Origin: Paguma larvata
Taxonomy: Eukaryota; Chordata; Mammalia; Carnivora; Viverridae
Direction: 5' to 3'
Assembly (NCBI GenBank): GCA_030068075.1
Contig: CM057830.1
Coordinates: forward strand, 27,746,247-27,810,246
DNA length: 64,000 nucleotides
Shown here one piece after another: positions 19,946-62,930 of the stretch; within the stretch, counting starts at the first letter, position 1, and every line of letters starts with the position of its first letter. The position numbers and the translations under genes were made by a program. The notes beneath the pieces are model-generated. The model saw only the letters and a program-made list of their open reading frames with translations, did no database searches and had not been told where the DNA came from.

Positions 19946-20053
19946 GTGCTCGCTTCGGCAGCCCATATACTAAAATTGGAAAGATACGGAGAAGATTAGC
20001 ATGGCCCCTGCGCAAGGATGACAAGCAAACTGTTGAGGCGTTCTATATTTTTT
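19946..20053 (+). pseudogene. RNU6 pseudogene: U6 snRNA retro-pseudogene, fused to L1
   Basis: The whole U6 spliceosomal RNA is present, from 'gtgctcgcttcggcagc' through 'gaagattagcatggcccctg' and 'cgcaaggatgaca' to the T-run. It carries several substitutions (for example in the 5' stem-loop and in the 3' stem 'agcaaactgttgaggcg'). There is no obvious snRNA promoter upstream, only a SINE tail. The T-run passes directly into L1 ORF1 sequence. This marks a template-switch chimera made by L1 reverse transcriptase, not a functional snRNA gene. Confidence 0.95.
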
Positions 20054-20734
20054 AGGCCTTGGATGAAATACAAAGCAAACTGGAAGCAGCCACAGCACGG
20101 ATTGAAGAGACAGAGGAGAGAGTAAGTGTATTAGAAGATAAAATTATGGAAAAAGAGGAAGCAGAGAAAAAGAAAGAGAAGCTGTTCCAGGAACAGGAAA
20201 GGAGAATCCGAGAGCTGAGTGATGCACTCAAATGAAACAGTATCCATATCATAGGAATTCCAGAAGAAAAAGAAGAGAGAGAAAGTAGTCGAAGGGGTGC
20301 TTGAACAAATCATTGCTGAGAACTTCCCCAACGTGAGGAACGAAATGATCATGGAAATCCAAGAGGCACAGAGAACTCCCCTCAGACGTAACTTGAATAG
20401 ACCTTCTGCACGGCACATCATAGTGAAGCTGGCAAAATTTAAAGACAGGGAGAGAATCCTGAAATCAGCTAGGGACAAAAGAACCTTAACATACAAAGGC
20501 AGACACATAAGTGTTGTAGCAGACTTATCTACAGAAACTAGGGAAGCCAGAAATGAATGGCAGGATATCTTCAGTGTTATGAGCAGGAAGGATATGCAAC
20601 CAAGAATCCTGTATCCGGCTAGCCTGTCATTCAGAACAGAAGGAGAGATCAAGGTTTTCCCCAACAAACAAAAACTGAAGGAATTCATCACAAATAAGCC
20701 AGCATTACAAGAGATTCTGAGGGGCAATCTTTGA
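20054..20734 (+). pseudogene. L1 ORF1 remnant (RNA-binding chaperone)
   Basis: L1 ORF1p is an RNA-binding trimer with a coiled coil, an RRM-like domain and a C-terminal domain. The 5' third is missing. An in-frame TGA near 20233 and frame changes near 20280 break the rest. The last 145 codons (20297-20734) are open and carry the conserved stretches 'QEAQRTPLRRNLNRPSARHI' and 'RILYPASLSFRTEGEIKVF'. It overlaps the ORF2 frame start by 4 bases. Confidence 0.85.
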
Positions 20735-23700
20735 AGGAAAGGTTGCAAAGAACACAAACTACCAGAGAAAGCCTAACAAACATGAAACCTACAGATAATA
20801 CAGGGACTATACGCCCATATTTTTCAATATTAACATTGAATGTAAAGGGACTAAATGCACCAATCAAAAGACACAGGGTAACAGAATGGATTAAAAAACA
20901 AGACCCATCTATTTGTTGTCTTCAAGAAACTCATGTTAAACCTGAAGACCCCTTTAGATTGAATGTGAGGGGATGGAGAACTATCTACTATGCTACTGGA
21001 AGTCAGAAGAAAGCTGGAGTAGCCACACTTATATCAGACAAACTAGAATTTAAAATGAATGATGTAATAAGAGATGAAGAAGGACATTATATAATAGTCT
21101 CAGGGACCATCCTGTACAAAGAAATAACAATTATAAATATCTACGTGCCAAATTCAGGGGCAAACAAATTTGTAAAACAAATAATTACAAACAAAAGCAA
21201 CCTTATCGATAAAAATGTCCTAAAAGTAGGGGAACTTAACACACCACTCTCAGCATTGGACAGTTCCACAAAACAGAAAGTCACCACAGAAACAATGGCC
21301 CTGAATGACACGTTAGAACAGATGGGACTAACAAATATCTTCAGGGTCCTTCACCCAGAAGCCAAGGAATTTACATTCTTCTCAACTGCACATGGTACAT
21401 TTTCCAAGACAGACCACATTTTGGGGCACAGGAAAGCTCTGAATAAATATAGAAGAATTGAGATCATATCGTGCACACTGTCAGACCACAGTGCTTTGAA
21501 ACTTGAAATCAACCAAAGGAAGAGGTCTGGAAAATATCCAAAAACATGGAGGCTAAGGAACAACCTACTAAAAGACGAGTGGGTCAACCAAGCAATCAGA
21601 GAAGAAATTAAAAAATACATGGACACAAATGAAAATGAAAATACAACAATCCAAACGCTCTGAAACACAGCAAAGGCAGTCCTGAGAGGGAAATATATTG
21701 CAATCCAGACCCACCTCATGAAACACGAAAAATCAATAACACAAATTCTAACAGCACACCTAAAAGAACTAGAAGCAGAACAACGAAAATAACCCAAACC
21801 CAGCAGAAAGAGAGAAATAACAAAGACCAGGGCACAAATTAATCCTATGGAAACAGAAAAAGTAGTGGAACAGATCAATGAAACCAAGGGCTGGCTCTTT
21901 GAAAAAATAAACAAATAGACAAACCTCTAGCCAGGCTTCTCAAAAAGAAAAGAGAGAGAACTCAAATAGATAAAATCAGGAAAGAAAAGGGAGTAATTAC
22001 AACCAATTCCTCAGAAATACAAGCAATCGTCAGAGAATACTATGAAAAATTATATGCCACCAAACTCAGCAACCTAGAAGAAATGTATAAAGTCCTAAAC
22101 TGCCACACGCTACCAAAACTCAAATGGAAAGAAATAGAAAATTTGAACAGACCCATAACTAGTGAAGAAATTGAATCAGTTATCAAAAATCTCCCATCAA
22201 ATAAAATCCCTGGACCAGATGGCTTCCCTGCAGATTTTTACCAGACATTTAAAACAGAGTTAATTCCTATTCTCCTCAAGCTGTTCCAAAAAATTGAGAC
22301 GTAGGGAAAATTCCCGGACTCATTCTATGAAGCTAGCATCACTCTGATTCCCAAACCAGATCGAGACACAGCAAAGAAAGAGAATTACAGGCCAATATCC
22401 CTGATTAATATGGATGCAAAAATTCTAAACAAGGTACTAGCAAATCGAATCCAACAGCATATAAAAGAATTATTCACCAGGATCAAGTAGGATTCTGCCC
22501 TGGGTTGCAGGGATGGTTCATCATTCACAAATCAATCAACGTGATACATCACATTAACAAAAGAAAAGATAAAAACCATACGATCCTGTCAATAAATGCA
22601 GAAAAAGCATTTGACAAAATACAGCACTCTTTCCTAATAAATAACCTCGAGAAAGTCAGGACAGAAGGAACATACTTAAACATCATAAAAGCCATATATG
22701 AAAAGCCCACAGCTAATATCATCCTCAATGGGGAAAAATTGAGAGCCTTCCCCCTGAGATTAGGAACACGACAGGGGTGTCCACTCTCGCCACTCCTATT
22801 TAACATAGTGTTGGAAGTCCTAGCATCAGCAATCAGACAACAAAACAAAATAAAATGCATCAAGATTGGCAAGGAGGAAGTTAAACTTTCACTTTTTGCA
22901 GATGACATGATACTTTACATGGAAAACCCGACAGAATCCACCAAAAGCCTACTAGAATTGATCCAGAAATTCAGCAAAGTTGCAGGGTACAAAATCAGTG
23001 TACAGAAATGTGGCATTTCTATACACCAACAATGAAGCAGCAGAAAGAGAAATAAAGAAGCTAATCCCTTTCACAATTGCACCAAAAACCAGAAAATACT
23101 TAGGAATAAACCTAACCAAAGAGGTGAAAGACCTCTACACTGAAAACTATAAAAAACTTATGAAGGAAATTGAGGAAGACACAAGGAAATGGAAAAACAT
23201 CCCATGCTCATGGATCAGAAGAATAAATATCATTAAATTGGCAATACTACCCAAAGCAATCTATACATTCAATGCAATCCCAATCAAAATTGCACCAGCA
23301 TTCTTCTCAAAGCTAGAGCAAACAATCCTAAAATTTGTATGGAACCACAAAAGACCCCGAATAGCCAAAGTAATATTGAAGAAGAAAACCAAAGCGGGAG
23401 GCATCACAATCCCAGATTTTAACCTCTACTACAAAGCAGTAGTCATCAAGACTGTATGGTATTGGCACAAAAACAGACACATAGACCAATGGGATAGAAT
23501 AGAGAACCCAGAAATGGACCCACAAGCATATGGCCAACTAATCTTTGACAAAGCAGGAAAGTGTATCCAATGGAAAAATGACAGCCTCTTTAACAAATGG
23601 TGCTGGGAGAACTGGACAGCAACATGCAGAAGAATGAAACTAGACCACATCCTTACACCACTCACAAAAATAAACTCTAAATTGATAAAAGATCTTAATG

Positions 23701-24634
23701 TGAGACAGGAAACCATTAAAATCCTAGAGGAGAAAGCAGGAAAAAGCCTCCTTGACCTAAGATGCACCAATTTCTTACTCGACACGTCTCCAAAGGCAAA
23801 GGAATTAAAAACAGAAAGGACTACTGGGACCTCATCGAGATAAAAAGCTTCTGCATGGAAAAAGAAACAACCAACAAAACTGATAGGCAACCAATGGAAT
23901 GGGAAAAGATAATTGCAAATGACACATCAGATAAAGGACTAGTATCTAAAATATATAAAGAAACTATCAAACTCCACACCTGCAAAATGAATAATCCAGT
24001 GAAGAAATGGACGGAAGATATGAATAGACACTTCTCCAAAGAAGACATCCAAATGGCAAACAGACACATGAAACGTTGCTCAATGTCACTCATCATCAGG
24101 GAAATACAAATCAAAACCACACTGAGATACCACCTCACACCAGTCAGAGTGGCTAAAATGAACAAATCAGGAAACTATAGATGCTGGCGAGGATTTGGAG
24201 AAACAGGCACATCCTGCACTGTTGGTGGGAATGCAAATTGGTGTAGCCACTCTGGAGAACAGTGTGGAGGTTCCTCAAAAAAATGAAAATAGATTTACCC
24301 TATGACCCAGGAATAGCACTGTTAGGAATCTACCCAAGGGATACAGGCCTGCTGGTGCATAGGGGCACGTGTACCCTGATGTTCATAGCAGCACTTTCGA
24401 CAATAGCCAAATCATGGAAAGAGACTAAGTGTCCATCAACTGATGAATGGATACAGAAGATGTGGTATATATATATATACAATGGAATACTATGCAGCAA
24501 TGAGAAAGAATGAAATCTGGCCATGTGTGGCAACATGGATGGAACTGGAGGGTATTATGCTGAGTGAAATAAGTCAGGCAGAGAAATACATATGCCATAT
24601 GTTCCTATGCATTGGTAGGCTTTGGGAGACCTAA
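20731..24634 (+). pseudogene. L1 ORF2 (endonuclease-reverse transcriptase), broken
   Basis: ORF2p nicks target DNA and copies L1 RNA into the nick. The endonuclease part is open to 21663, with 'LQETH' and 'SDHSA' visible, but the usual 'GDLNT' reads 'GELNT', replacing a catalytic-type Asp by Glu. A TGA at 21661 ends it. The RT part appears at 22083-22304 (stop TAG), 22505-23035 (with the 'FADDMILY' catalytic motif near 22895) and 22980-23843. The C-terminal part (23762-24634) sits in further frames. At least five stops or frameshifts make it dead. Confidence 0.9.
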
Positions 24635-24868
24635 CAGAAAACCAGGGAGGAGGGGAAGAGGAGAAGGAAAGGAAAAAAGAAGCCACAGAGAGGAAAGAAG
24701 ACATAACATAAGAGACTATCAAAGACTAAGAACAAACTGAGGGGAGAGGGGGGTGTTGGAGGATGGAGAGTGGGTGATGGGCACAGAGGAGGGCACTTGT
24801 TGGGATGAGCACTGTGTGTTGTATGGAAACCAAATTGACAATAAATTATGCAAAAAATTAAAAAATAA

Positions 24869-25817
24869 AATAAAATATTTTTAATTGAGAGAGTGATAAA
24901 AGAGCTTGAACAACTAAATCGTTTATTGTATGTCCCTTAGCAGGCCATGATGTAATTGTTAAAATTAGAAAGACCTGAAAGAAAGTAAAGGAATACGTGG
25001 AAAAGTGGACACCTAAGTTACCTACTGCAAAATGAAAAGCAAAACTATCATATGGAGTATTGTGGAAAATAGCAAGTGTACCTAATAAATTCATAAATCT
25101 GGCTAAAGAGATGTATAGAAAGAGTAAAAAGAAAATTCAATTGACTTCTTTAAATGTCTGACAATATACGAGAAGATGGAAGATGAACTAAAGGAGAAAT
25201 TGTTCAGTTTTAAAACAATAATGTATGCAAAAAAGGCTGCCCAGGACAGCCTTTGCAGCTAAGAAAAGATCCAAAGGTAAACAATGACCTCATAACAAAG
25301 AACAAAACCTGGACAGTAAAACACACTCTCACACTAAAGAAGAAAAGGGTGTCTCCAAACTAACCCTTTTTAAAGATTTCAGAAAGATTTCAAAACATTC
25401 CTCACTAACTTTTTGCTAGGCAACTCACATCAGCCTCACAGTGACCAAAGGTAGATAAGGACTTGTCTCAGAAAGAAATGTGGGTGTGCATTTTATTTAA
25501 TGAGTGAACACCCAACAGGAATCACAAGCAATCTGATAGAGGATCTGTGCTTTTATAAGCACTGTGAGCTTAGACTAAAAGGGACAGAAACAGTTCAGAA
25601 GGAGAAAAATTCTTGGTAATCTCAACCTTGTACACACAGGAAGCACACTAAGAAAGCTACTCTACTACAAACACTGACGGACCATTTATTTGAAGCAAGA
25701 TAGGATGATTCAGAAGGCTGAATGAAGATACCAAAGGACCAAATGGTGATTTAGAAATGGGACTAGGCTCTTATCAAGGACTTGGAAATATATGCCTAGT
25801 TGAATTTTAGAATTACT
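24869..25817. other. Unassigned intergenic DNA
   Basis: A-rich DNA after the L1 tail; no gene or named repeat recognised. Confidence 0.35.
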
Positions 25818-26028
25818 GGGGCACCTGGGTGGCTCAGTCAGTTGAGCATCTGACTTCGGCTCAGGTCATGATCTCACTATTTGTGAGTTCGAGCCCCACA
25901 TCGGGCTCTGAGCTCTCAGCACAGAGCCTGGAACCTGCTTCGGATTCTGTGTCTTCCTCTCTCTCTGCCCCTCCCCTGCTCATGCTCTGTCCCGCTCTCA
26001 AAAATAAATAAACATTAAAAAAAAAAAA
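25818..26028 (+). mobile_element. Carnivore SINE with target-site duplication
   Basis: Complete and close to consensus. AGAATTACT lies immediately before the head and immediately after the A-tail. Confidence 0.93.
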
Positions 26029-32602: not shown

Positions 32603-33282
32603 ATGTGCCGTATTATTATAGGAAAAAAAAATCAAAATTCAATTTATATTCTGTGCAATATTCCTTCTGTGATTAATTTCACATAATTTCCACCCCAACT
32701 CCAAAACTGTGGCCACGGTTCCCCAAAGAAGCCAAGGTCTTTCAAGTCTATTCCCTCAGTCTGACACAGACTCTCTTTACCAACACATGCCCAACTGCCA
32801 CTTTCTACCAGCAGAAACTTAAAATTATATCTAAAGATCCATATTTAAATGCAGTATCTCTGAAATATTTCCCAACTCTCATTAAATAATTATCACATGG
32901 TTTCTTGTACTTACATAATAGTACAGATATAAATCTCTTATAGCATATAATATATTGTATTCTCATAGGTTATATGTGATTTTCCATCACCTGGAGTATA
33001 AATTACTCGGGAGTATTTTATTTTGCAATATTTGACATACCTCTAGTGGACATTAACTGATTTATGTTGGACAGATTAATTATTAAATAAGTCCAACTGA
33101 ATAACGTTTAAAATTCCATAGCCAAATCTTGTCTTTACAAGAACAACTTGAAGGAAGGATTCCAAAACAACTGTTAAGTGGGGCTGGTAGTACTAATGAG
33201 TCCAAAAACTCTTGGAGGTCTCCTTCAGATAACATTGCAAATGAGCATTATTCTCACCACACCATTCTAACTGCACTAACAT
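32603..33282. other. Unassigned AT-rich DNA
   Basis: Nothing recognised. Confidence 0.3.
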
Positions 33283-33472
33283 ACAGAGAGAGAGAGAGGG
33301 AAGAAGAGAGAGGACAGGAAGAGAGAGAGAGAGAGGGAAACAGAGAATCCCAAGCAGGCTCCCCACTGTCAGCTCAAACCCGATGTAGGCCTCTAACTTA
33401 TGAATGGTGAGATCATGACCTGAGCTGAAATTGAGTTGATTGCTTAACAGACTGAGCCACCCAGATGCCCCT
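33283..33472 (-). mobile_element. Carnivore SINE, reverse
   Basis: A GA-rich start, then 'caagcaggctccccactgtc' and 'gactgagccacccagatgcc'. A 93-codon frame across it is repeat-derived and not a gene. Confidence 0.9.
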
Positions 33473-33841
33473 TTTTGTTTGTTTTGACAAAAGCTTCAGG
33501 GAATGTGTAATTCAAGATGAGGCGATTAAGAGTGAAATAGGATAAAATGTATATTTAAAAATAATAAAAATAATTAGAAATGATAAAATAATAAAAAACA
33601 AAATAAAATAAAAAACATAACTTAAAAAAAAAAGAGTGAAAATGAAAAGACCCAACTAAAGAAATTCAGGCATGGCCCTGGTAAATTATCAAAAATTTTC
33701 GGCTTCTTAAGGTCTATGATTTGAGGAGTTCATGAGGAGAAAAGAGAGAATTCCGTGAGCATGTGAAAATGAGAATTGCTTCATTTCACCAGCATGACTT
33801 GAGTGCGTGCACGACATTTTGCAGTAGGCAGACATACGGTC
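33473..33841. other. A-rich spacer upstream of the RLIM-like gene
   Basis: AATAAA-type low-complexity runs at about 33560-33635, then unique sequence leading into the putative promoter. Nothing else recognised. Confidence 0.35.
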
Positions 33842-34168
33842 ATGTAACTAGTTACATTTGGTTACTTTAATATACAAACAACTGGGGCATTTCCGGATCC
33901 GGAAAAGCCTCCTGACCTCCTGAGAAGACGCTCGTGCGGGGTAAAAGAAGGTAGGACAGTGACGATTTTGAATGAAATGAAACCTACCCTGAATTCAGTC
34001 CCTAGTTGGTAATAATGCCTAGTATAATGGATGCCTAGGCAACGTGGCCTAGCAAGCTCCATTATAAAGCGGTTCTCTGCTAGGGCCTAGTCAGAGGCTG
34101 TCGGGCTACGGTGACGGTGACGGTGACGGAGGAGGCACCCACGCGAAGGCCGATCCAATGGAAACAAA
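33842..34168 (+). promoter_or_regulatory. Putative promoter and 5' UTR of the RLIM-like gene
   Basis: Local rise in GC and CpG just upstream of the coding start. Three perfect palindromes lie here: ATGTAACTAGTTACAT (33842-33857), TTTCCGGATCCGGAAA (33890-33905, two facing GGAA cores as in ETS sites) and TGCCTAGGCA (34032-34041, part of an RFX X-box-like 'GCCTAGGCAAC'). A tandem 'ggtgac' repeat, with CRE-like TGACG cores, lies at about 34110-34128 and looks like a 5' UTR. No TATA box is evident. Promoter function is inferred from position and composition only. Confidence 0.45.
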
Positions 34169-34290
34169 GATAATCCAGTTATTGTATTTTATATGTTTAT
34201 ATATATATATTAGTATATAAATTAAAATCTGGTTGTTGTATTTCAACAGCATGTCATAAAAGTCAGATATTTTTCAACTTGTTCATCAAG

Positions 34291-37200
34291 ATGGAAAATA
34301 CAGATTCTGACGAAGAAGATGGATCCGCGGCTCAGTGCCGAAGTCAGATGGACCGATTGGTCCGGGAAGAAAACTTCTATGAATTTGTAAATAACCTGAG
34401 TGAAGGAGATTACAGGCTTATGAGGGATAACGATTTGTTAGGCATCCCCGGTGAAAGTACAGTAGAAGAGTTGATGAAGAGACTTCAACAAATTAAAGAA
34501 AACTCACCGGAAAACTCAGAGGAAAATACAGGTATATTTTACTTTTAGGGAGGGAAACTAGAACGAAATGGGTAAGGAACTTCATAATTGTGTCAGCCAA
34601 AGACGATTCAGAAGTGGCACATATTAATTTGATGCTAAGTAATTTCTCATTAAAGAGAACTGGTATTTATTTGATTTTCAGTGAGAATGTAAAGATATCT
34701 TTTATTTTCCCCAGTTCACATTTGGGTTACTTTAATTGGGAACCAGTGTGAAATAGCCTATTGCTATTTTTCTTGGTTTTCTACCTCAACTGAAAGTTCC
34801 TCCAACTTCCTGAGTTACTTTTGTTATATGGCCTTCCTCACCAGCAAAAAATACTGTATATGCTATTCGACCAGTGGTAATTTTGCTCCCAACCCCCAGG
34901 GAACATTTGACAATGTCTTGGGATATTTTTGATTGTCAAAAATGATGAATGGATGTTACTGGCAAATAGTGGGCAGAGGCCAAGAATCTTACAATGTATA
35001 AGATAGCTCCCCAAAACAAAGAGTTGGGCAGCACCAAAATGTCAACAGTGCCAAGGTTGAGAAATCCTGCTCTAATCCCAGGTCTGGTGCTTCTCTCCTA
35101 GTGTGAAGTAGAGAATTTTACTATCTAGTGAAGAGGATATATAACAGTTTGGTTCTTAAATATGGCCTCAAATGTACTATGCTAGATTCAATCTATTCAT
35201 TTGATCTGACCTTCAATTTCATGTCAATTCAAAATCTTGGTTACAGTGGGAAGTATTCAAATACTTTTACTTATTTTTTAATGTTTTAATACATTTATTT
35301 TTGAGAGAGTGAGACTGCATGAGCGGGGGAGGGGCAGAGAGAGAGGGAGACACAGAATCTGAAGCAGGCTCCAAGCTCTGAGCTGTCAGCACAGAGTCCA
35401 ATGCAGGGCTCAAACTCATGAACCATGAGATCATGACCTGAGCCAAAGTCAGACGCTTAATCAACTAAGCCACCCAGGTGACCCCTCCACCTTTTTTTTT
35501 TAAAAGAAGTATTCAAATACTTTTAAACCTATAAACTTTATTTAAATTTGGGCAATAGCTACAATAGTCATATTTTAAAATAACTTTATATGTTATCATA
35601 AGCTCTTAAGAGCCTAGAAGAAGTAATGTTTTGGCTAATGAGAATTAGGCAGTAATGTAAATCAAACTAAAATACTAGCACTGTACCTTAACCTTGTTTA
35701 ATTGTATTTGTGTTTGACAGTAGAGTTAAAAATGTTGCCTCTTGACTTTCCTCCCACAGTGATACACAGGCCTGTGTATATGGTGAAATATTGAAAATAG
35801 ACTTGCTCCAGATTCCCTTTGAAAACATAAAAAGATTCTCTAAATGCATCTATGATTAAGGAACTCAAACTTTCATGCCATTACTTGTAAATCTAGAAAA
35901 TGTAGTTTACAAAATATTAACTCTATATATGTGAAATCTGCTTAAAATACCTGAGTACCAAAGTTATAATATTTTGTTTGTTTTTGGAACAGAGTTTCAG
36001 AGTGCTATTCTATGATGGTTTTACTTTTGGTAGTTCCTTTATGCCTCCACTTATTTTTGTTAACAGGTGGAGGAGAGTCCTCAGACAATAATAGTGAGTA
36101 TCTGTTTGGCTGGGTGGACACTTTTGAACAAACTGAATATGTGACAAGTGGGCAAAGAGAAAACCAATCTTGGGAAGAAAAAACCCAGATTAATTCAGAC
36201 AGTAATGATTCCACATACAATTTAGAAGTAAATTCTGACCCTAATGATGAGAGCCCAAATGCAGAGAATGAATATGTAGCATCTACCAGATCTCCCAGAG
36301 CATACAACATGGAAAGCAGCCTAAGTCAAGCAGAAAACACACAATCTGAATCAACATTTATAAGATCACCTGGATCAGAACAAAGTACAACTGAAGCATT
36401 AATGCAAGTTCCAGTTACCAGAGGTCAGCGAAGAGCAAGAAGCAGGAGCCCTGACCATCGGAGAACTAGAGCAAGAACTGAAAGTAGTCCTGCCCCAAAC
36501 AGAATAAGTGAACTTTTACAAAGATTTCATTATAGTTTAATATCTCCGACTTTTGAGCAGTCTCTGGTAAATGAGACAGAGAGATTTTCTAGGATTCAGC
36601 ACCAAGAAACATCAAGACAGCAAGTAACTGGACTTCAGCTGCAAAATAGGCGTCTGGCTGCAACTTCTGGAGCAAGCAGTGCACTTCAAGAAAAAAGTTC
36701 TCCAGACACAACCAATAATGGTGAATCTTGGGGACTGGGTCAGATAAATCCAACCATACCATTTGATCGTGAAGTAGGACAAGTTCATCCTAGGGCATAC
36801 TCTCAGAGAGAAGGCATAGCTACCAGAACTCAGTTAACATCCGAGACACCAAACACTGTCACTTTAGAAAGTGAACAAGGAAGACTTGGGCATATGTTTC
36901 CACATTCTGAGCAGGCAGATGCAAGAGCTTATGTCAGGAATGCCAGAGTTCCTTCTCTTCATATCATTTTAACTACTGGTTTCAATGATATATCACCTCC
37001 TGCAATTCAGAGCACATTAAGGCAGACAGTGACAGGATCCAGTGACTTTAGTGGTGACCTCGGTGACACTGACACTGATTTAGTGCACAGTGTCTCACCC
37101 CTAAGTCCAAACATGGAAAGGGAAGAGTCACTAAATGAAAGAGATGCTTCTGATGGTAGGGCTCATTCTGATTGCAGTTCAAACCTTAGTTCTGATTCCC

Positions 37201-37718
37201 ATTCAAGTTCCATATTGAATTCTAGTTCAGGCTCCAGTTGCGTGTCTAGTTACAATTCTACTCCTATATCCAGTTCCAGCTCCAGTGATGAATATTCAGA
37301 TATTAGTTCAGTGATGTTTGAAGAGAGTAATGACATAAGCTTACCACCAGGCTCACCATCAGAAACCAGGAGAGAAAACAGACCTATGAGCCCAATAACA
37401 TTTGATGACAGTGATTCTTGGACCTCCCTTAATCTGGACCATTTTTTCCTCTTGAATGAAGACGATCATGACCAACGTACAGGACTTACCGAAGCACAGA
37501 TTGACAACTTGGCTATAAGATCTTTCGGTGAAGGTGGTGCATTAAAAGCCTGTACCATCTGCATCACCGAGTACACAGAAGGCAACAAACTTCGCATCCT
37601 ACCTTGCGCCCATGAATTTCACGTCCACTGTATCGATCGCTGGCTGTCACAGAACTCCACCTGTCCGATTTGTCGTAGGGAAGTGGCAGGTTCTGCTGAA
37701 AGAGAAAGTTCTAATTGA
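34291..37718 (+). CDS. RLIM-like: RLIM-like RING-H2 E3 ubiquitin ligase, two coding exons
   Basis: Exons 34291-34531 and 36067-37718 join in phase (G|GT, a glycine codon) to 630 codons; donor ACAG|GTATAT, acceptor TTGTTAACAG|GT. The ATG has a good context (AAGATGG). RLIM/RNF12 is a nuclear E3 ligase for LIM-domain cofactors and REX1, and a dosage factor in imprinted X inactivation. Visible: RLIM-type N-terminus ('[20 protein letters not shown]', '[11 protein letters not shown]'), a basic nuclear-targeting-like block around residues 199-218 ('[19 protein letters not shown]'), a Ser-rich stretch about 445-497, 'FFLLNEDD', and a complete C3H2C3 RING-H2 at 576-616 ending 'NSTCPIC'. It differs from RLIM at many sites in the middle and ends ESSN rather than ESVV. 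The open frame, intact splice sites and intact RING argue for a functional paralogue or gametologue, fast-evolving outside the RING. Closer to RLIM than to RNF6. Confidence 0.88.
34872..35069 (+). mobile_element. MER20-like hAT DNA transposon
   Basis: 'cagtggtaattttgctccca', 'gggaacatttgacaatgtct', 'tggatgttactggcaaatag', 'gggcagaggccaagaatctt' and 'caaggttgagaaatcctg' follow the MER20 consensus end to end, close to its usual ~220-bp length. It lies in the RLIM-like intron. Confidence 0.8.
35270..35490 (-). mobile_element. Carnivore SINE in the RLIM-like intron, with TSD
   Basis: Reverse SINE ('aggctccaagctctgagctg', 'actaagccacccaggtgacc'). AAGTATTCAAATACTTTTA occurs at 35251-35269 and again at 35507-35525, a perfect 19-bp duplication. 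Some 15 extra T/A-rich bases lie between the SINE head and the right copy. Confidence 0.93.
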
Positions 37719-37937
37719 GATCTGAATTCTCAGCTATATATACTGTTACAGTGATGGACGAACAATAGTCACCTTCTTATGTCCACTTCTGGAGTGATGC
37801 TTAAATAGAACAATTTGAATCTAATCTAAAACTGAATCCAAATGTAACAATCTTAACTGAATGATAGGTTCTTGAGGTAATGACTGGACTTTGTCCACTT
37901 CCTGTTCCAGAATAAAAGGAAATATTAAAAAAAAAAC
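37719..37937 (+). other. Proximal 3' UTR of the RLIM-like gene, possible poly(A) site
   Basis: The sequence after the stop keeps the look of a 3' UTR. AATAAA at about 37911 is followed some 12 bases later by A10. In a normal gene this could be a genomic A-run; in a retrocopy it would be the fossil poly(A) tail. No matching duplication was found on the two sides of the locus. Confidence 0.45.
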
Positions 37938-39817
37938 AATATCCTATCTGACAGCAGAAACAAATTTCACACCATAGTAGATCACTGCATTTCAAAAGAA
38001 ACTTAGCAGGTACACTGGGGTGAAATGTTCCTGATTCCATGAGAGAAATGTATTAATATGATATAATCAACCCAGATGGATCCTAGTAGTTTTATCTAGT
38101 CATGTAAATCCCAGACATGTCATAGCCCTGTCCCGTCTTAGATGTGCATACAAAGACAAAGTTTAAAAATTTTGTCTTCCTATCTCTCTTCCCAGCAGTT
38201 TATATCACTCCCTAATACTACTTTAAAGTTTCTCCCATTTTCCACTACAAATGTATCAATTAAGGTCCTGGGCAAAAAAATGATAGCATACTTGAAAAGG
38301 GTGATGGAATAGCATTTACTGAAGAGACTATTTACTAAAAATGTATAAAGAATGAAAGGAAACCAAGAGATACTGAAGTACCCTAGGCTAGCAACTATGA
38401 GAAGTCAGTATTATCATCACTAGGTTTCAAGGGGCATGGAGAGAGAAGTAGTAGTTCATGCAACCCAGAGTATCCCGTAGTTGTAGCAAAAGACCATCCA
38501 ACAAGAGCTGTGACCTCAGATAAACAAAAGGCAGCCAATGCTAACCTAAAACTTGGAGTAAAGGGTCATGGAAATAAATAAAAATACTTTTACCTTTCTT
38601 TGCTTCTTATTTCTAAAATCCTTTTGGTAGTTTACATTACCAAACCCAACCTGAAGAAAAAGTAAGAGAGACTGGGTGATGAAGCTGATAAAGGTCAGCC
38701 CCCTGGAATCACAAAGGAGGGCAGAGAAGGATGGCCAATGGATCCAAAGAGCAGATCAGACACCATATACCACAACCGGCATTCTCAATTCTTTTCAAAC
38801 TCTGTATGCTTTCTTGCCTCTAACTCTTGCCCTCCATTCTGCTCTTTGACTTAGCTCTTTAACAATCCCCCTTTCAATTTTCCTTTCATCTACTCAGAGT
38901 TGGCACCATAAAGGAGAGAACAAGTACATTTGATCTTTAGAAGTGATGAGATGATGAGATAAACCCATAGAATTTAATTACATTGCTTTTAAACATGACA
39001 CATATTGGTTTGCTGTGACTGTAAACTACTAAGGAAAGAAGCCGATATAGGTATTTCTTCAATTTTTGCTTTATAAATATATTCAAGTTTCGATTTCTTT
39101 TTATTTATAAGTCTAGTTCATACATTTAAAAAAAACATATCCTTAATTCTTATAAAGTTTCTTATGGCTTATATATCTTAATGTTTATGTGAGTTTTCCA
39201 AAGCACCCAATTACTGCTCAGAGCCTCCCAACTTTCGGTCGGAAAGCTTTAAGGTAAAAAGGTAATCCAAGTTCAAAAATATGCCTACTTAATTCAATTC
39301 TAGTTGTCCCCATAAAAGTATCCCAAAATCATGACACTCTAAAATCAAATTTTAGGTCATGCTTCCTTTCTAATCCAAACATAGCGAAGGCTTTTTCTTG
39401 TAATTCTGCCTGGAAACTCTGGAGATATTTTTTTTTGGGGGGGTGTTATTCTGTTATTGTTATTGTTGTTGTTGTTTTGTATACTGGCCAAACCAGCAAG
39501 TTTTGCTGAAAATTTTCAATCCTGGCTTAGGTGATAGTACATTGTATTATAACCAAAGAACAGTCATAAATATTGTAGAATGTGCAACCTATCTATATAA
39601 ATATGAACAATGTTAAGTATGAACCTGTTTTAAAAATTTAAAGTTGGTATCATTACTAACTTTTATTTTCTATGTGAATTGTTGGCAGCCACAGTATTTA
39701 CACAGAAACATGAAATATAAATAAGTGGGAAGTGTGGATGATGTCTTTCAATATATCTTTGAGCTAGAATATTTTTCACACAGAAGATATTTGCATGGCT
39801 GGAAATGAAGTCTTTTT
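37938..39817. other. Unassigned DNA downstream of the RLIM-like gene
   Basis: No further gene or named repeat. It may include distal 3' UTR, since RLIM has a long one, but nothing in the sequence proves this. Short (TTG)n near 39455-39475. Confidence 0.35.
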
Positions 39818-40399: not shown

Positions 40400-41455
40400 T
40401 ACGCCTTCTGTGGTAGAATTCTAAAATGACCCCCAAGGATTTTTACAGTTGCCTCTCCCCTGGAATATGAGACTGTGAATGTGATAGAATATTATTCCCA
40501 TTAGTAGGTTATGACATATGGCATAGTCAATTGGGAGATACTGACCTAATCAGATGAGCCCTTAAAGTCAAAGGACTTCCAGTCCAGATAAGATGGTTTA
40601 TACTCCTCTCTCTCTGCTCTCCCTCTGTACATACAACTATATATCCTAGAAATCACATGAGACAACTAAAAGAGAACTTTGAAAGTTCTAAAGGAGAAAG
40701 TATATTGACTAGAGACCCTCCAAATGGATGAACAACTTCGTGGCAGTGCCTCTTATGACCCCTTCCCAAAAGAAAAAGGTGACTTAGGCTCGGGATTTCC
40801 TAACTCCCAACTTAGTAACAGAAAGTGGCTCAAATAGGCTCTTCCTCCACCAGATCAAATAGGAGTCCCACTGAAAACACCAGGTAAGCTCTGCAGAAGC
40901 TGTAAGGAGGAAAAACTAAAATCCCTACTGATAATAAGAGACCTGGAAAAGTGTTTCTTTTCCCCACTGGGCGTGAGGCACCCTTTCCCCATCCAAACCT
41001 ACTGGTGATCAAGGGTATCAGCAAAAGTGATCCCACCATATAAAGCTCCCACCTGGAAAATGCTCTCCTCCTTTGCTGGGAGACTCTTTTCCCACACCCA
41101 GAGATACCAGGTAACTTGCCTGTACCTACAAACTTTAAATAGGAACCAAAGTATCCTAACATAATAGCCAAAATTTTCCATAGACAATAAAATATCACCT
41201 TTCATACCAAGAACAAGATACATGCAGCTTGAATGAGAAATGATGAATGATGCCAATCCTAATATGAATTTGATGTTCGAATTATCTGACAAGGTTTTTA
41301 ATACTGATCTCAGGCATTTAGACCTTTAACAGAGAACCAAGTCACCTCATGTCAGTATTCTGACTTGCAGACCTGTGAACTAATATAGGGATGTTTTAAG
41401 TCACTACATTTGTGCCAATTTCTTATGCAGCAATAGAAAACTAACAAATTTCTCC
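40400..41455 (+). mobile_element. MaLR-like LTR split by an old L1 5' fragment
   Basis: 40400-40575 ('aattctaaaatgacccccaa', 'tgacctaatcagatgagccc') and 41365-41455 ('cagacctgtgaactaatata', 'gcagcaatagaaaactaaca') read as the two ends of a MLT1-type LTR. The middle, about 40580-41320, is a different repeat. Old and diverged. Confidence 0.5.
40580..41320 (+). mobile_element. Old L1 5' UTR-like fragment
   Basis: 'tcctagaaatcacatgagac', the string of 'ggagtcccac...' segments and the end 'cgaattatctgacaaggttt' resemble the 5' region of old L1 families. Low confidence; needs a repeat-library comparison. Confidence 0.4.
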
Positions 41456-62261: not shown

Positions 62262-62930
62262 GTTTTTCTTTTTATATGCCTTATTTTTTTAATTGAGGTG
62301 TAATCGACATATAACTTTACATTAGTTTCAGGTATATAACATAATGCTTTTGAAACTGGTAACCAAAGGTTAATAGGACCAATAAGCACAGCTGCAACTA
62401 TTTAACCAGGTCTTTTTTTTTAATTTTTTTAATGTTTTATTTTATTTTTGACACAGAGAGACAGAGCATGAGTGGGGGAGGGGCAGAGAGAGAGAGGGAG
62501 ACACAGAATCTGAAGCAGGCTCCAGGCTCCGAGCTGCCAGCACAGAGCCCGACGCGGGGCTCGAACTCACAGACCGCGAGACCATGACCTGAGCCGAAGT
62601 CGGACGCTCAACCGACTGAGCCACCCAGGCGCCCCTTTTTTTATTTGCCTTTAAATTTCTCTGACCTCCTTAGAGGAGGCAGATTTGAGGCTTGCCCTCC
62701 CATGTCCTCATGTTGCTGCCTATTGACTAAACTCTTCCTTTGCTGCATACTTCATGTCTCAGTGATCATCTTTACTATACATCGCCCAGATGAACTTGGG
62801 TTTTGTTACAATTTGATATTTGTATATATTACAAACAGATCACCCCATAAGTGTAATTGACATCCATCAGTATACATAGTCACAATTTCTTTTTCTTGTG
62901 ATGAGGACTTTTAAGATAATTTTATCTTAC
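62262..62930 (-). mobile_element. Old L1 3' UTR, reverse, split by a SINE
   Basis: 'aattgaggtgtaatcgacat', 'ttagtttcaggtatataaca' (62288-62343) and 'aaacagatcaccccataagt' (62830-62850) are reverse old L1 3' sequence. A SINE lies in the middle. 62640-62810 is not clearly L1. Confidence 0.5.
62408..62635 (-). mobile_element. Carnivore SINE, reverse, near consensus
   Basis: High CpG retention ('gcccgacgcggggctcgaac', 'cggacgctcaaccgactgag') marks it as one of the youngest SINEs in the window. Confidence 0.95.

What the first reader, a model, noticed from the sequence alone, without database searches (positions are those of the whole stretch)
34291..37718. Intact, divergent RLIM paralogue with a conserved intron position
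Two exons splice in phase to 630 codons with a complete RING-H2 and RLIM-type N-terminus. The sequence differs from RLIM at many positions in the middle while RLIM is strongly conserved among placental mammals. An open frame of this length with intact splice sites after so much change suggests selection. A second RLIM-type ligase could act in REX1/LIM-cofactor turnover or X-dosage control in cats, or have a testis role. Function is inference.
Basis: partly seen in the sequence, partly recalled or inferred. Interest (0 to 1): 0.85.

Follow-up and report, generated by a model that had tools for sequence, protein, structure and literature searches.

The report
Old half-spliced X-linked RLIM retrogene
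This is an intact second copy of the X-chromosome gene RLIM, apparently made long ago from a half-spliced RNA, that kept its ubiquitin-ligase domain but lost the positive charge of the region RLIM uses to sit on chromatin, so it probably does a different job from RLIM, perhaps in sperm formation.

Summary
In detail: two exons (34291-34531, 36067-37718) splice to an intact 630-codon RLIM-type RING-H2 protein. It is not RLIM: the same genome carries RLIM 29 Mb away on the same 123-Mb contig, which also carries PJA1, so the contig is very probably the X; an RNF6-like gene lies on another contig. RLIM and RNF6 both have two coding introns. The window copy lacks the first exactly, keeps the second with RLIM's intron sequence, and its detectable homology to RLIM ends at AATAAA plus A10. 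That is the pattern of a semi-processed retrogene. It is not cat-specific: 'RLIM-like' relatives occur in Afrotheria, Xenarthra, Euarchontoglires and Laurasiatheria and branch off after the marsupial split; the host is a feliform, probably not a felid. RLIM's basic region, needed for chromatin, REX1 and USP26 binding, has net charge +2 to +7 in 56 of 56 RLIM rows scored and 0 or less in 90 of 90 RLIM-like rows scored. RING and NLS are kept. Best reading: a nuclear ubiquitin ligase with changed targeting, not a second REX1/X-dosage regulator; a male-germline role is inferred, untested.

The parts
33875..34266 (+). CpG-rich presumed promoter and 5' leader
   Evidence: 8-13 CpG per 250 bp against a window mean of 1.9; similar densities occur at four other places in the window (near 30.1, 37.4, 52.9 and 62.5 kb), so this is not unique. 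Weak similarity of its core to unmasked sequence near RLIM's CpG-rich block, reached by 3 of 200 shuffles.
34030..34056 (+). Two adjacent RFX X-box-like motifs (34030-34043, 34044-34056), each with one mismatch
   Evidence: Only pair within 30 bp found in overlapping 491-bp steps across the window; 2 of 2000 mononucleotide shuffles have one. Against: no exact consensus match in the window, 23 one-mismatch entries overall, and at least one motif in 14.5% of 200 dinucleotide shuffles. Motif recalled and chosen after seeing the sequence.
34265..34531 (+). First coding exon with RLIM-homologous leader; CDS 34291-34531 (codons 1-80 and first base of 81). Corresponds to two RLIM exons fused.
   Evidence: Homology to RLIM starts within two bases of the acceptor of RLIM's ATG exon
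34450..34451 (+). Fused exon junction where RLIM carries intron A (1088 bp); intron absent exactly here
   Evidence: RNF6 has the intron at the same place
34532..36066 (+). Retained intron B, homologous to RLIM's intron B, with a later SINE (about 35270-35505) between 20-bp target-site repeats 35250-35269 and 35506-35525
   Evidence: 66-67% BLAST identity along the intron; 77% in a gapped global alignment without the SINE; repeats D8
36067..37718 (+). Second coding exon: middle region, NLS, former basic region, NES-like segment, RING-H2, stop 37716-37718
36420..36482 (+). NLS with one conserved RSRSP motif (residues 199-219)
36798..37094 (+). Segment aligned to RLIM's basic region (residues 325-423), net charge -5 here, +6 in mouse RLIM
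37548..37676 (+). RING-H2 finger (residues 575-617)
   Evidence: Pfam zf-RING_2 55 bits; PDB RLIM 6W7Z
37911..37936 (+). Poly(A) signal AATAAA (37911-37916) and A10 run (37927-37936) where detectable homology to RLIM ends

Best explanation
RLIM-like is a semi-processed retrogene of X-linked RLIM. A partly spliced RLIM transcript, ending at a proximal poly(A) site just after the stop codon, was copied back into the X on the placental stem lineage, carrying the last intron along. The copy acquired a CpG-rich promoter and has been kept as a gene. Its product should be a nuclear RING-H2 E3 with intact catalytic residues, NLS and acidic N-terminus. Because the RLIM basic region is no longer basic, it should not dock on chromatin, REX1 or USP26 as RLIM does, and so should ubiquitylate a different or soluble set of nuclear proteins. 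Expression in post-meiotic male germ cells is the most likely setting. Shown by sequence: intron pattern, ends of homology, RLIM and PJA1 on the same contig, open frame, charge loss in the family rows scored. Inferred: the retrotransposition event, ligase activity, substrate change, germline expression.
For: RLIM and RLIM-like on one 122.9-Mb contig with PJA1. Intron A absent exactly at the splice junction, intron B kept with homologous sequence; RNF6 has both introns. Detectable homology ends at AATAAA+A10 (alignment beyond: z -0.2 and 1.2; inside control z 38) and starts at RLIM's exon acceptor. Clade support 100/100 with turtle and marsupial RLIM outside; with RNF6 as root, RLIM-like stays with eutherian RLIM (SH-aLRT 91). 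Selection: dN/dS 0.56 (bootstrap 0.40-0.82) over 227 codons, 0.21 over 78 codons of the first two RLIM exons; mean identity in the family 81% for the RING, 51-64% for seven of the ten segments; W576 equivalent in 80 of 80 rows. Basic region 0 or below in 90 of 90 scored against +2 to +7 in 56 of 56 RLIM. Basic region necessary and sufficient for chromatin (PMC10781586, passages), needed for USP26 binding and self-association (PMC7613676, passages). Mouse testis makes a short Rlim mRNA by proximal polyadenylation (PMC7935487, section 5).
Against: No transcript or protein was seen. No convincing target-site duplication, expected at this age. A pure A10 run is odd for an insertion this old; RLIM has a short A-rich stretch there too, so the 3' boundary rests on loss of homology more than on the A-run, and part of RLIM's 3' UTR reads N. 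The mouse testis site lies 69 bp after the stop, here 193 bp. dN/dS of the third-exon piece is 0.85, near neutral. Of six RLIM-like rows left out of the charge count by length, five are -7 to -12 and one (colugo P0135, 79 aa) is +2; the one RLIM row left out is 0 over 25 aa. RNF6's whole basic region sums to 0, although its first two parts are +6. The residue aligned to R575, a patient-variant site, is not R in 8 of 80 RLIM-like rows (it is R in the window). Single patient changes in the basic region left REX1 ubiquitylation and degradation in cells working (PMC5976579, passages), so charge is only a proxy for binding.
Confidence: 0.62

Rival explanations
1. Ordinary DNA-level (segmental) duplication of RLIM on the X, followed by exact loss of the first coding intron.
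For: Both genes are on the same contig and share intron B sequence.
Against: Needs a separate exact intron loss, and both ends of homology coincide with an exon acceptor and a poly(A) signal; RLIM intron sequence upstream of the ATG exon shows no homology (z -0.1) and nothing beyond AATAAA aligns better than shuffles.
Confidence: 0.1
2. A decaying pseudogene that happens to be open in this species.
For: 'LOW QUALITY' models in donkey, right whale and one of the Mesoplodon copies suggest damage or assembly error in some lineages; the exon-3 piece has dN/dS 0.85; no human, mouse or rabbit RLIM-like protein was listed.
Against: Open for 630 codons at a divergence where neutral copies stay stop-free in 0.7% of simulations; overall dN/dS below 1; RING and N-terminus conserved in the family.
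Confidence: 0.07
3. A second REX1/X-dosage E3 working like RLIM.
For: On the RLIM contig, RING and NLS conserved, RSRSP motif exact in 65 of 80 family rows; single patient changes in RLIM's basic region do not stop REX1 degradation in cells (PMC5976579, passages).
Against: Charge of the chromatin- and REX1-binding basic region lost in 90 of 90 scored rows; second SR motif region shortened in 36 of 38 rows.
Confidence: 0.1
4. A regulator of RLIM in trans: its acidic N-terminus and non-basic middle copy RLIM's own autoinhibitory N-terminus and cover RLIM's basic region.
For: Residues 1-206 equivalents: median charge -25 in 67 RLIM-like rows, -29 in the window, -11 in 40 RLIM rows; RLIM's N-terminus inhibits its basic region (PMC10781586, passages); RLIM self-associates through that region (PMC7613676, passages).
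Against: No interaction data; intact RING suggests a catalytic role.
Confidence: 0.11

Closest known systems
RLIM/RNF12 (X-linked RING-H2 E3)
   Same: N-terminal region, NLS with RSRSP, RING-H2 residues, intron B position and sequence, same contig
   Different: Lacks intron A, lacks positive charge of the basic region, shorter by one residue near codon 74 and in the NLS tail, 53-55% identity to RLIM rows, faster evolving
RNF6 (paralogue; contig C17 in this genome)
   Same: Same architecture and intron B position
   Different: Keeps intron A and a basic first half of the basic region; RLIM-like branches with RLIM, not RNF6
NCBI/UniProt 'E3 ubiquitin-protein ligase RLIM-like' predictions in placental mammals
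   Same: Same clade
   Different: Computed gene models; no paper on them seen in the searches listed
Rodent preproinsulin I gene (Ins1), classic semi-processed retrogene (recalled, no call)
   Same: Functional retrogene that kept one of the parent's two introns
   Different: Different gene, age and function

Membership tests
RLIM/RNF6 family of RING-H2 E3s | C-terminal RING-H2 with RLIM-type catalytic residues | tested here: met
RLIM/RNF6 family of RING-H2 E3s | RLIM-type N-terminus (1-80) and NLS | tested here: met
   70% and 81% identity to mouse RLIM
RLIM/RNF6 family of RING-H2 E3s | Basic region, net positive | tested here: not met
   -5 in the window; 90 of 90 scored family rows at 0 or below. 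RNF6's whole region also sums to 0, its first two parts to +6
RLIM/RNF6 family of RING-H2 E3s | Phylogenetic descent from RLIM | tested here: met
RLIM orthologue (RLIM itself) | Occupies the RLIM locus | tested here: not met
   RLIM lies at 56.84-56.85 Mb of the same contig
Semi-processed retrogene | Some parental introns exactly absent, others retained | tested here: met
Semi-processed retrogene | 3' end at a poly(A) signal with A tract, 5' end in transcribed sequence | tested here: met
   for the 3' end; the 5' leader could not be fully tested because some RLIM sequence reads N
Semi-processed retrogene | Target-site duplication | tested here: inconclusive
   No convincing flanking pair in the repeat scan of 33000-39500, 20 of 29 families shown; age would erase it
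RLIM function in chromatin/REX1 control | Chromatin recruitment, REX1 ubiquitylation | not testable with these tools
   needs cells
Testis-expressed gene | Transcript in male germ cells | not testable with these tools
   no RNA data

The most novel reading that the evidence does not exclude
Placental mammals carry a second, overlooked X-linked RLIM that acts as an acidic decoy of RLIM: it pairs with RLIM's basic region in trans, lifts RLIM off chromatin, and so sets a dose-sensitive brake on the RLIM-REX1 pathway in the germ line or early embryo, a layer apparently missing in mice, where the pathway was worked out.
Probability: 0.08. Interest if true: 0.88.

Novelty: new variant of a known kind. 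Interest (0 to 1): 0.58.

Why it matters
RLIM is a dose-sensitive X-linked activator of X inactivation in mice and a human disease gene. A second, probably X-linked RLIM, seen in all four placental superorders but with no mouse or human member in the capped hit lists here, means RLIM biology known from mice may not carry over to cats, dogs, cattle, pigs or whales. The family also gives a natural test of what the basic region does: evolution removed its charge and kept the ligase.

Tried and rejected
Authentic RLIM locus: rejected, RLIM is elsewhere on the contig. RNF6 origin: rejected. Felid-specific novelty: rejected. Window inside Felidae: not supported; it falls outside lion+Leopardus, and the order of felids, hyena/meerkat and window is unresolved (AU p 0.43 for window+felids, 0.26 for felids+hyena/meerkat; window+hyena/meerkat in the best tree with support 61/33). 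A second, pre-felid paralogue in a true cat is not strictly excluded. Full DNA duplication: disfavoured. AlphaFold models of exon 2 were too poor to use (mean pLDDT 38.6 and 34.6). XIST exon 4 search gave nothing, and neither did its 14 controls, so it is uninformative. SNORD36 hit is at threshold (30.3 against 30 bits) and was set aside. Paper searches for RLIM with retrogene, paralog, ampliconic, pseudogene or Felis catus, and for 'RLIM-like', listed no paper on this gene; one listed paper with RLIM and ampliconic was checked by passages and concerns genotype calls in human RLIM (PMC12883445). A search for semi-processed retrogenes gave no paper, so the Ins1 precedent is from recall.

Limits: the homologue searches score only the candidates sharing most words and list the best 120 (of 160, 154 and 426 hits). 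No human protein, not even RLIM, appears by name in those lists, so absence of RLIM-like in human is not shown; in mouse only RLIM is listed. Clusters at 90% identity hide members. Thirteen Mesoplodon rows weight the RLIM-like counts. The X-box test was post hoc. No DNA of relatives was available, so dN/dS is only RLIM against RLIM-like in one genome, on unmasked parts, by the Nei-Gojobori count. Loxodonta, Galemys and Microcebus are long branches in the tree. My RNF6 join mis-set the two split codons by one residue each; the NLS, basic-region and RING figures are not touched.

Full report
What is there. The window lies at 27,746,247-27,810,246 of a 122.9-Mb contig (C8) in a 2.44-Gb genome. 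Exons 34291-34531 and 36067-37718 splice with GT..AG borders into 630 codons ending in one stop. The C-terminus is a RING-H2 finger (Pfam zf-RING_2, 55 bits), closest to the solved RLIM RING (6W7Z, E 1.5e-44). In the 144 kb around it the other stop-free stretches of 170 or more codons look like LINE-1 pieces or their reverse frames by eye, with no family search run on them.

Not RLIM itself. A DNA search of the whole genome with exon 2 found two places: the window and, at 74% identity, C8:56.846 Mb. That second place is RLIM: its frame reads the RLIM sequence up to masked stretches. A protein search gave 17 matches: the window gene's two exons, RLIM at 56.846-56.849 Mb of C8, an RNF6-like gene on contig C17, and weaker RING proteins. 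One of these, C8:52.44 Mb, is Praja-1 (PDB 2L0B, E 2.5e-51). RLIM and PJA1 are X-linked in other placentals (recalled; RLIM in mouse also PMC7935487, abstract passage), so C8 is very probably the X. Lengths of the longest contigs named for relatives (123-140 Mb in Geoffroy's cat, fox, mustelid, bear, rhino, hippo and several whales) fit X chromosomes, but others do not settle it (camel 102 Mb, bats mostly 47-73 Mb, sloth 55 and 194 Mb), so linkage outside this genome is inference.

How it arose. RLIM in this genome has two introns inside its coding sequence: A, 1088 bp, after ..GGCACCCCAG, and B, 1308 bp, after ..AATAGAG. RNF6 has introns at the same two places. In the window the exons flanking intron A are fused exactly (34450/34451), while intron B is present and homologous along its length (66-67% BLAST identity). 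Homology starts within two bases of the acceptor of RLIM's ATG exon and ends at AATAAAAGGAAATATT followed by ten A. Beyond that point the alignment scores like shuffled sequence (z -0.2 over 314 bases, z 1.2 over 124 bases), while the segment just inside scores z 38; the RLIM intron upstream of the ATG exon gives z -0.1. This is what reverse transcription of a partly spliced RLIM pre-mRNA with a proximal poly(A) site would leave. In mouse the Rlim mRNA of most tissues is about 7.5 kb and a 2.4-kb form made by polyadenylation just after the stop is detected in testis (PMC7935487, section 5). A heritable retrocopy must form in the germ line, so a germline short form is a natural template; this step is inference.

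Age and spread. In a careful tree of 48 proteins, 38 RLIM-like rows form one clade with 100/100 support, joined to eutherian RLIM, with marsupial and turtle RLIM outside both. The clade holds elephant, sloth, colugos, mouse lemur, ground squirrels and the Laurasiatheria sampled; elephant, mouse lemur and Galemys are long branches. A third search added manatee, galago, squirrels, cattle, goat and deer (the ones printed fall in the clade), and returned RLIM of opossum, koala, Tasmanian devil, birds and tuatara. A tree of 153 rows keeps 96 in the clade. Near codon 74, 37 of 37 RLIM-like rows with data are shorter than RLIM (35 by one residue); in the NLS tail 36 of 38 are shorter and two bats have RLIM's length. 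The copy therefore most likely arose after the marsupial split and before placental orders diverged. Thirteen Mesoplodon proteins whose named contig has one and the same length, 136.9 Mb, suggest local expansion in a beaked whale. In this genome it is single copy at the sensitivity.

Species. The window groups with an unnamed assembly-derived protein (P0002) inside Feliformia (100/100) but outside lion+Leopardus, which are 97% identical to each other and 84-86% to the window. AU tests do not settle the order among felids, hyena/meerkat and the window. A non-felid feliform is the simplest reading.

Selection. RLIM against the window, on the 227 codons readable in both, gives dN/dS 0.56 (bootstrap 0.40-0.82): 0.21 for 78 codons of the first two RLIM exons and 0.85 for 149 codons of the third. 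Within the family (38 rows) mean identity is 81% for the RING, 75% NLS, 68% N-terminus and 51-64% in the other seven segments; seven eutherian RLIM rows have 78-100%. Under neutrality at 0.08 substitutions per site 0.7% of 400 simulated copies stay stop-free; an assumed indel rate lowers this further.

What changed in the protein. Published constructs of mouse RLIM give NLS 206-226, basic region 326-423, NES 502-513, RING 546-587, and NLS phosphosites S212/S214/S227/S229 (PMC7613676, legend passages); SRPK phosphorylates RLIM and anchors it in the nucleus (PMC10952393, passages; that these are the SRPK sites is recalled). The basic region is necessary and sufficient for chromatin engagement and needed for REX1 ubiquitylation, and the N-terminal 206 residues are autoinhibitory (PMC10781586, passages); it also mediates self-association and USP26 binding (PMC7613676, passages) and aids ubiquitin transfer, although two single patient changes in it left REX1 degradation in cells working (PMC5976579, passages). 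Net charge of that region is +2 to +7 in 56 of 56 RLIM rows scored (51 are +6; one of 57 dropped by length, 0 over 25 aa) and -15 to 0 in 90 of 90 RLIM-like rows scored (six of 96 dropped by length: five are -7 to -12, one is +2). For its first two parts (326-381) mouse RLIM is +10, RNF6 of this genome +6, the window 0, so the loss is derived; RNF6's whole region, however, sums to 0. The eight RING cysteines and histidines are each intact in at least 79 of 80 rows and W576 in 80 of 80; R575 is kept in 72 of 80 and in the window. The first RSRSP motif is exact in 65 of 80 rows and in the window; the second is altered.

Mechanism proposed. Catalytic residues and nuclear signal kept, chromatin and REX1/USP26 docking probably lost: RLIM-like should work as a soluble nuclear E3 with its own substrates. 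Against redundancy with RLIM in X inactivation stands the charge loss. For a male-germline role stand RLIM's own role in round spermatids (PMC7935487, passages), the short-mRNA origin, fast evolution with expansion in a whale, and two adjacent X-box-like motifs in a CpG-rich presumed promoter (post hoc). The 70-kb RLIM region fetched has no such pair where readable. None of this is expression evidence.

Novelty. The gene exists in databases as 'RLIM-like' models; six paper searches listed no study of it. The semi-processed origin, placental-wide age and loss of basic-region charge were not seen in print in those listings.

Noticed in passing
window 19946-24877: A full-length U6 snRNA sequence (101 bits) joined directly to a 5'-truncated LINE-1: a U6-L1 chimera of the kind made by template switching (the mechanism is recalled).
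   Followed up: partly
window 35250-35525: A SINE in the retained intron between exact 20-bp target-site repeats, so a fairly recent insertion.
   Followed up: partly
hits P0026-P0049: Thirteen RLIM-like proteins of Mesoplodon densirostris, all with a longest contig of 136.9 Mb: possible X-ampliconic expansion in a beaked whale.
   Followed up: no
P0053, P0128, P0064: RING of mouse lemur and galago RLIM-like is 98% and 95% identical to mouse RLIM, and of a pig-like assembled protein 100%, above the family; gene conversion from RLIM, or a chimeric assembly for the last.
   Followed up: partly
window 41235-41312: SNORD36 match at the Rfam threshold (30.3 against 30 bits), probably marginal.
   Followed up: no
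window 25823-25908 and 62545-62630: ARAGORN tRNA-Arg calls that overlap repeated segments, probably tRNA-derived SINEs.
   Followed up: no
P0122 (Talpa occidentalis): A 1371-aa RLIM-like protein annotated as dentin sialophosphoprotein-like; some bat RLIM-like proteins reach 774-1076 aa, so the disordered middle has grown in some lineages.
   Followed up: no
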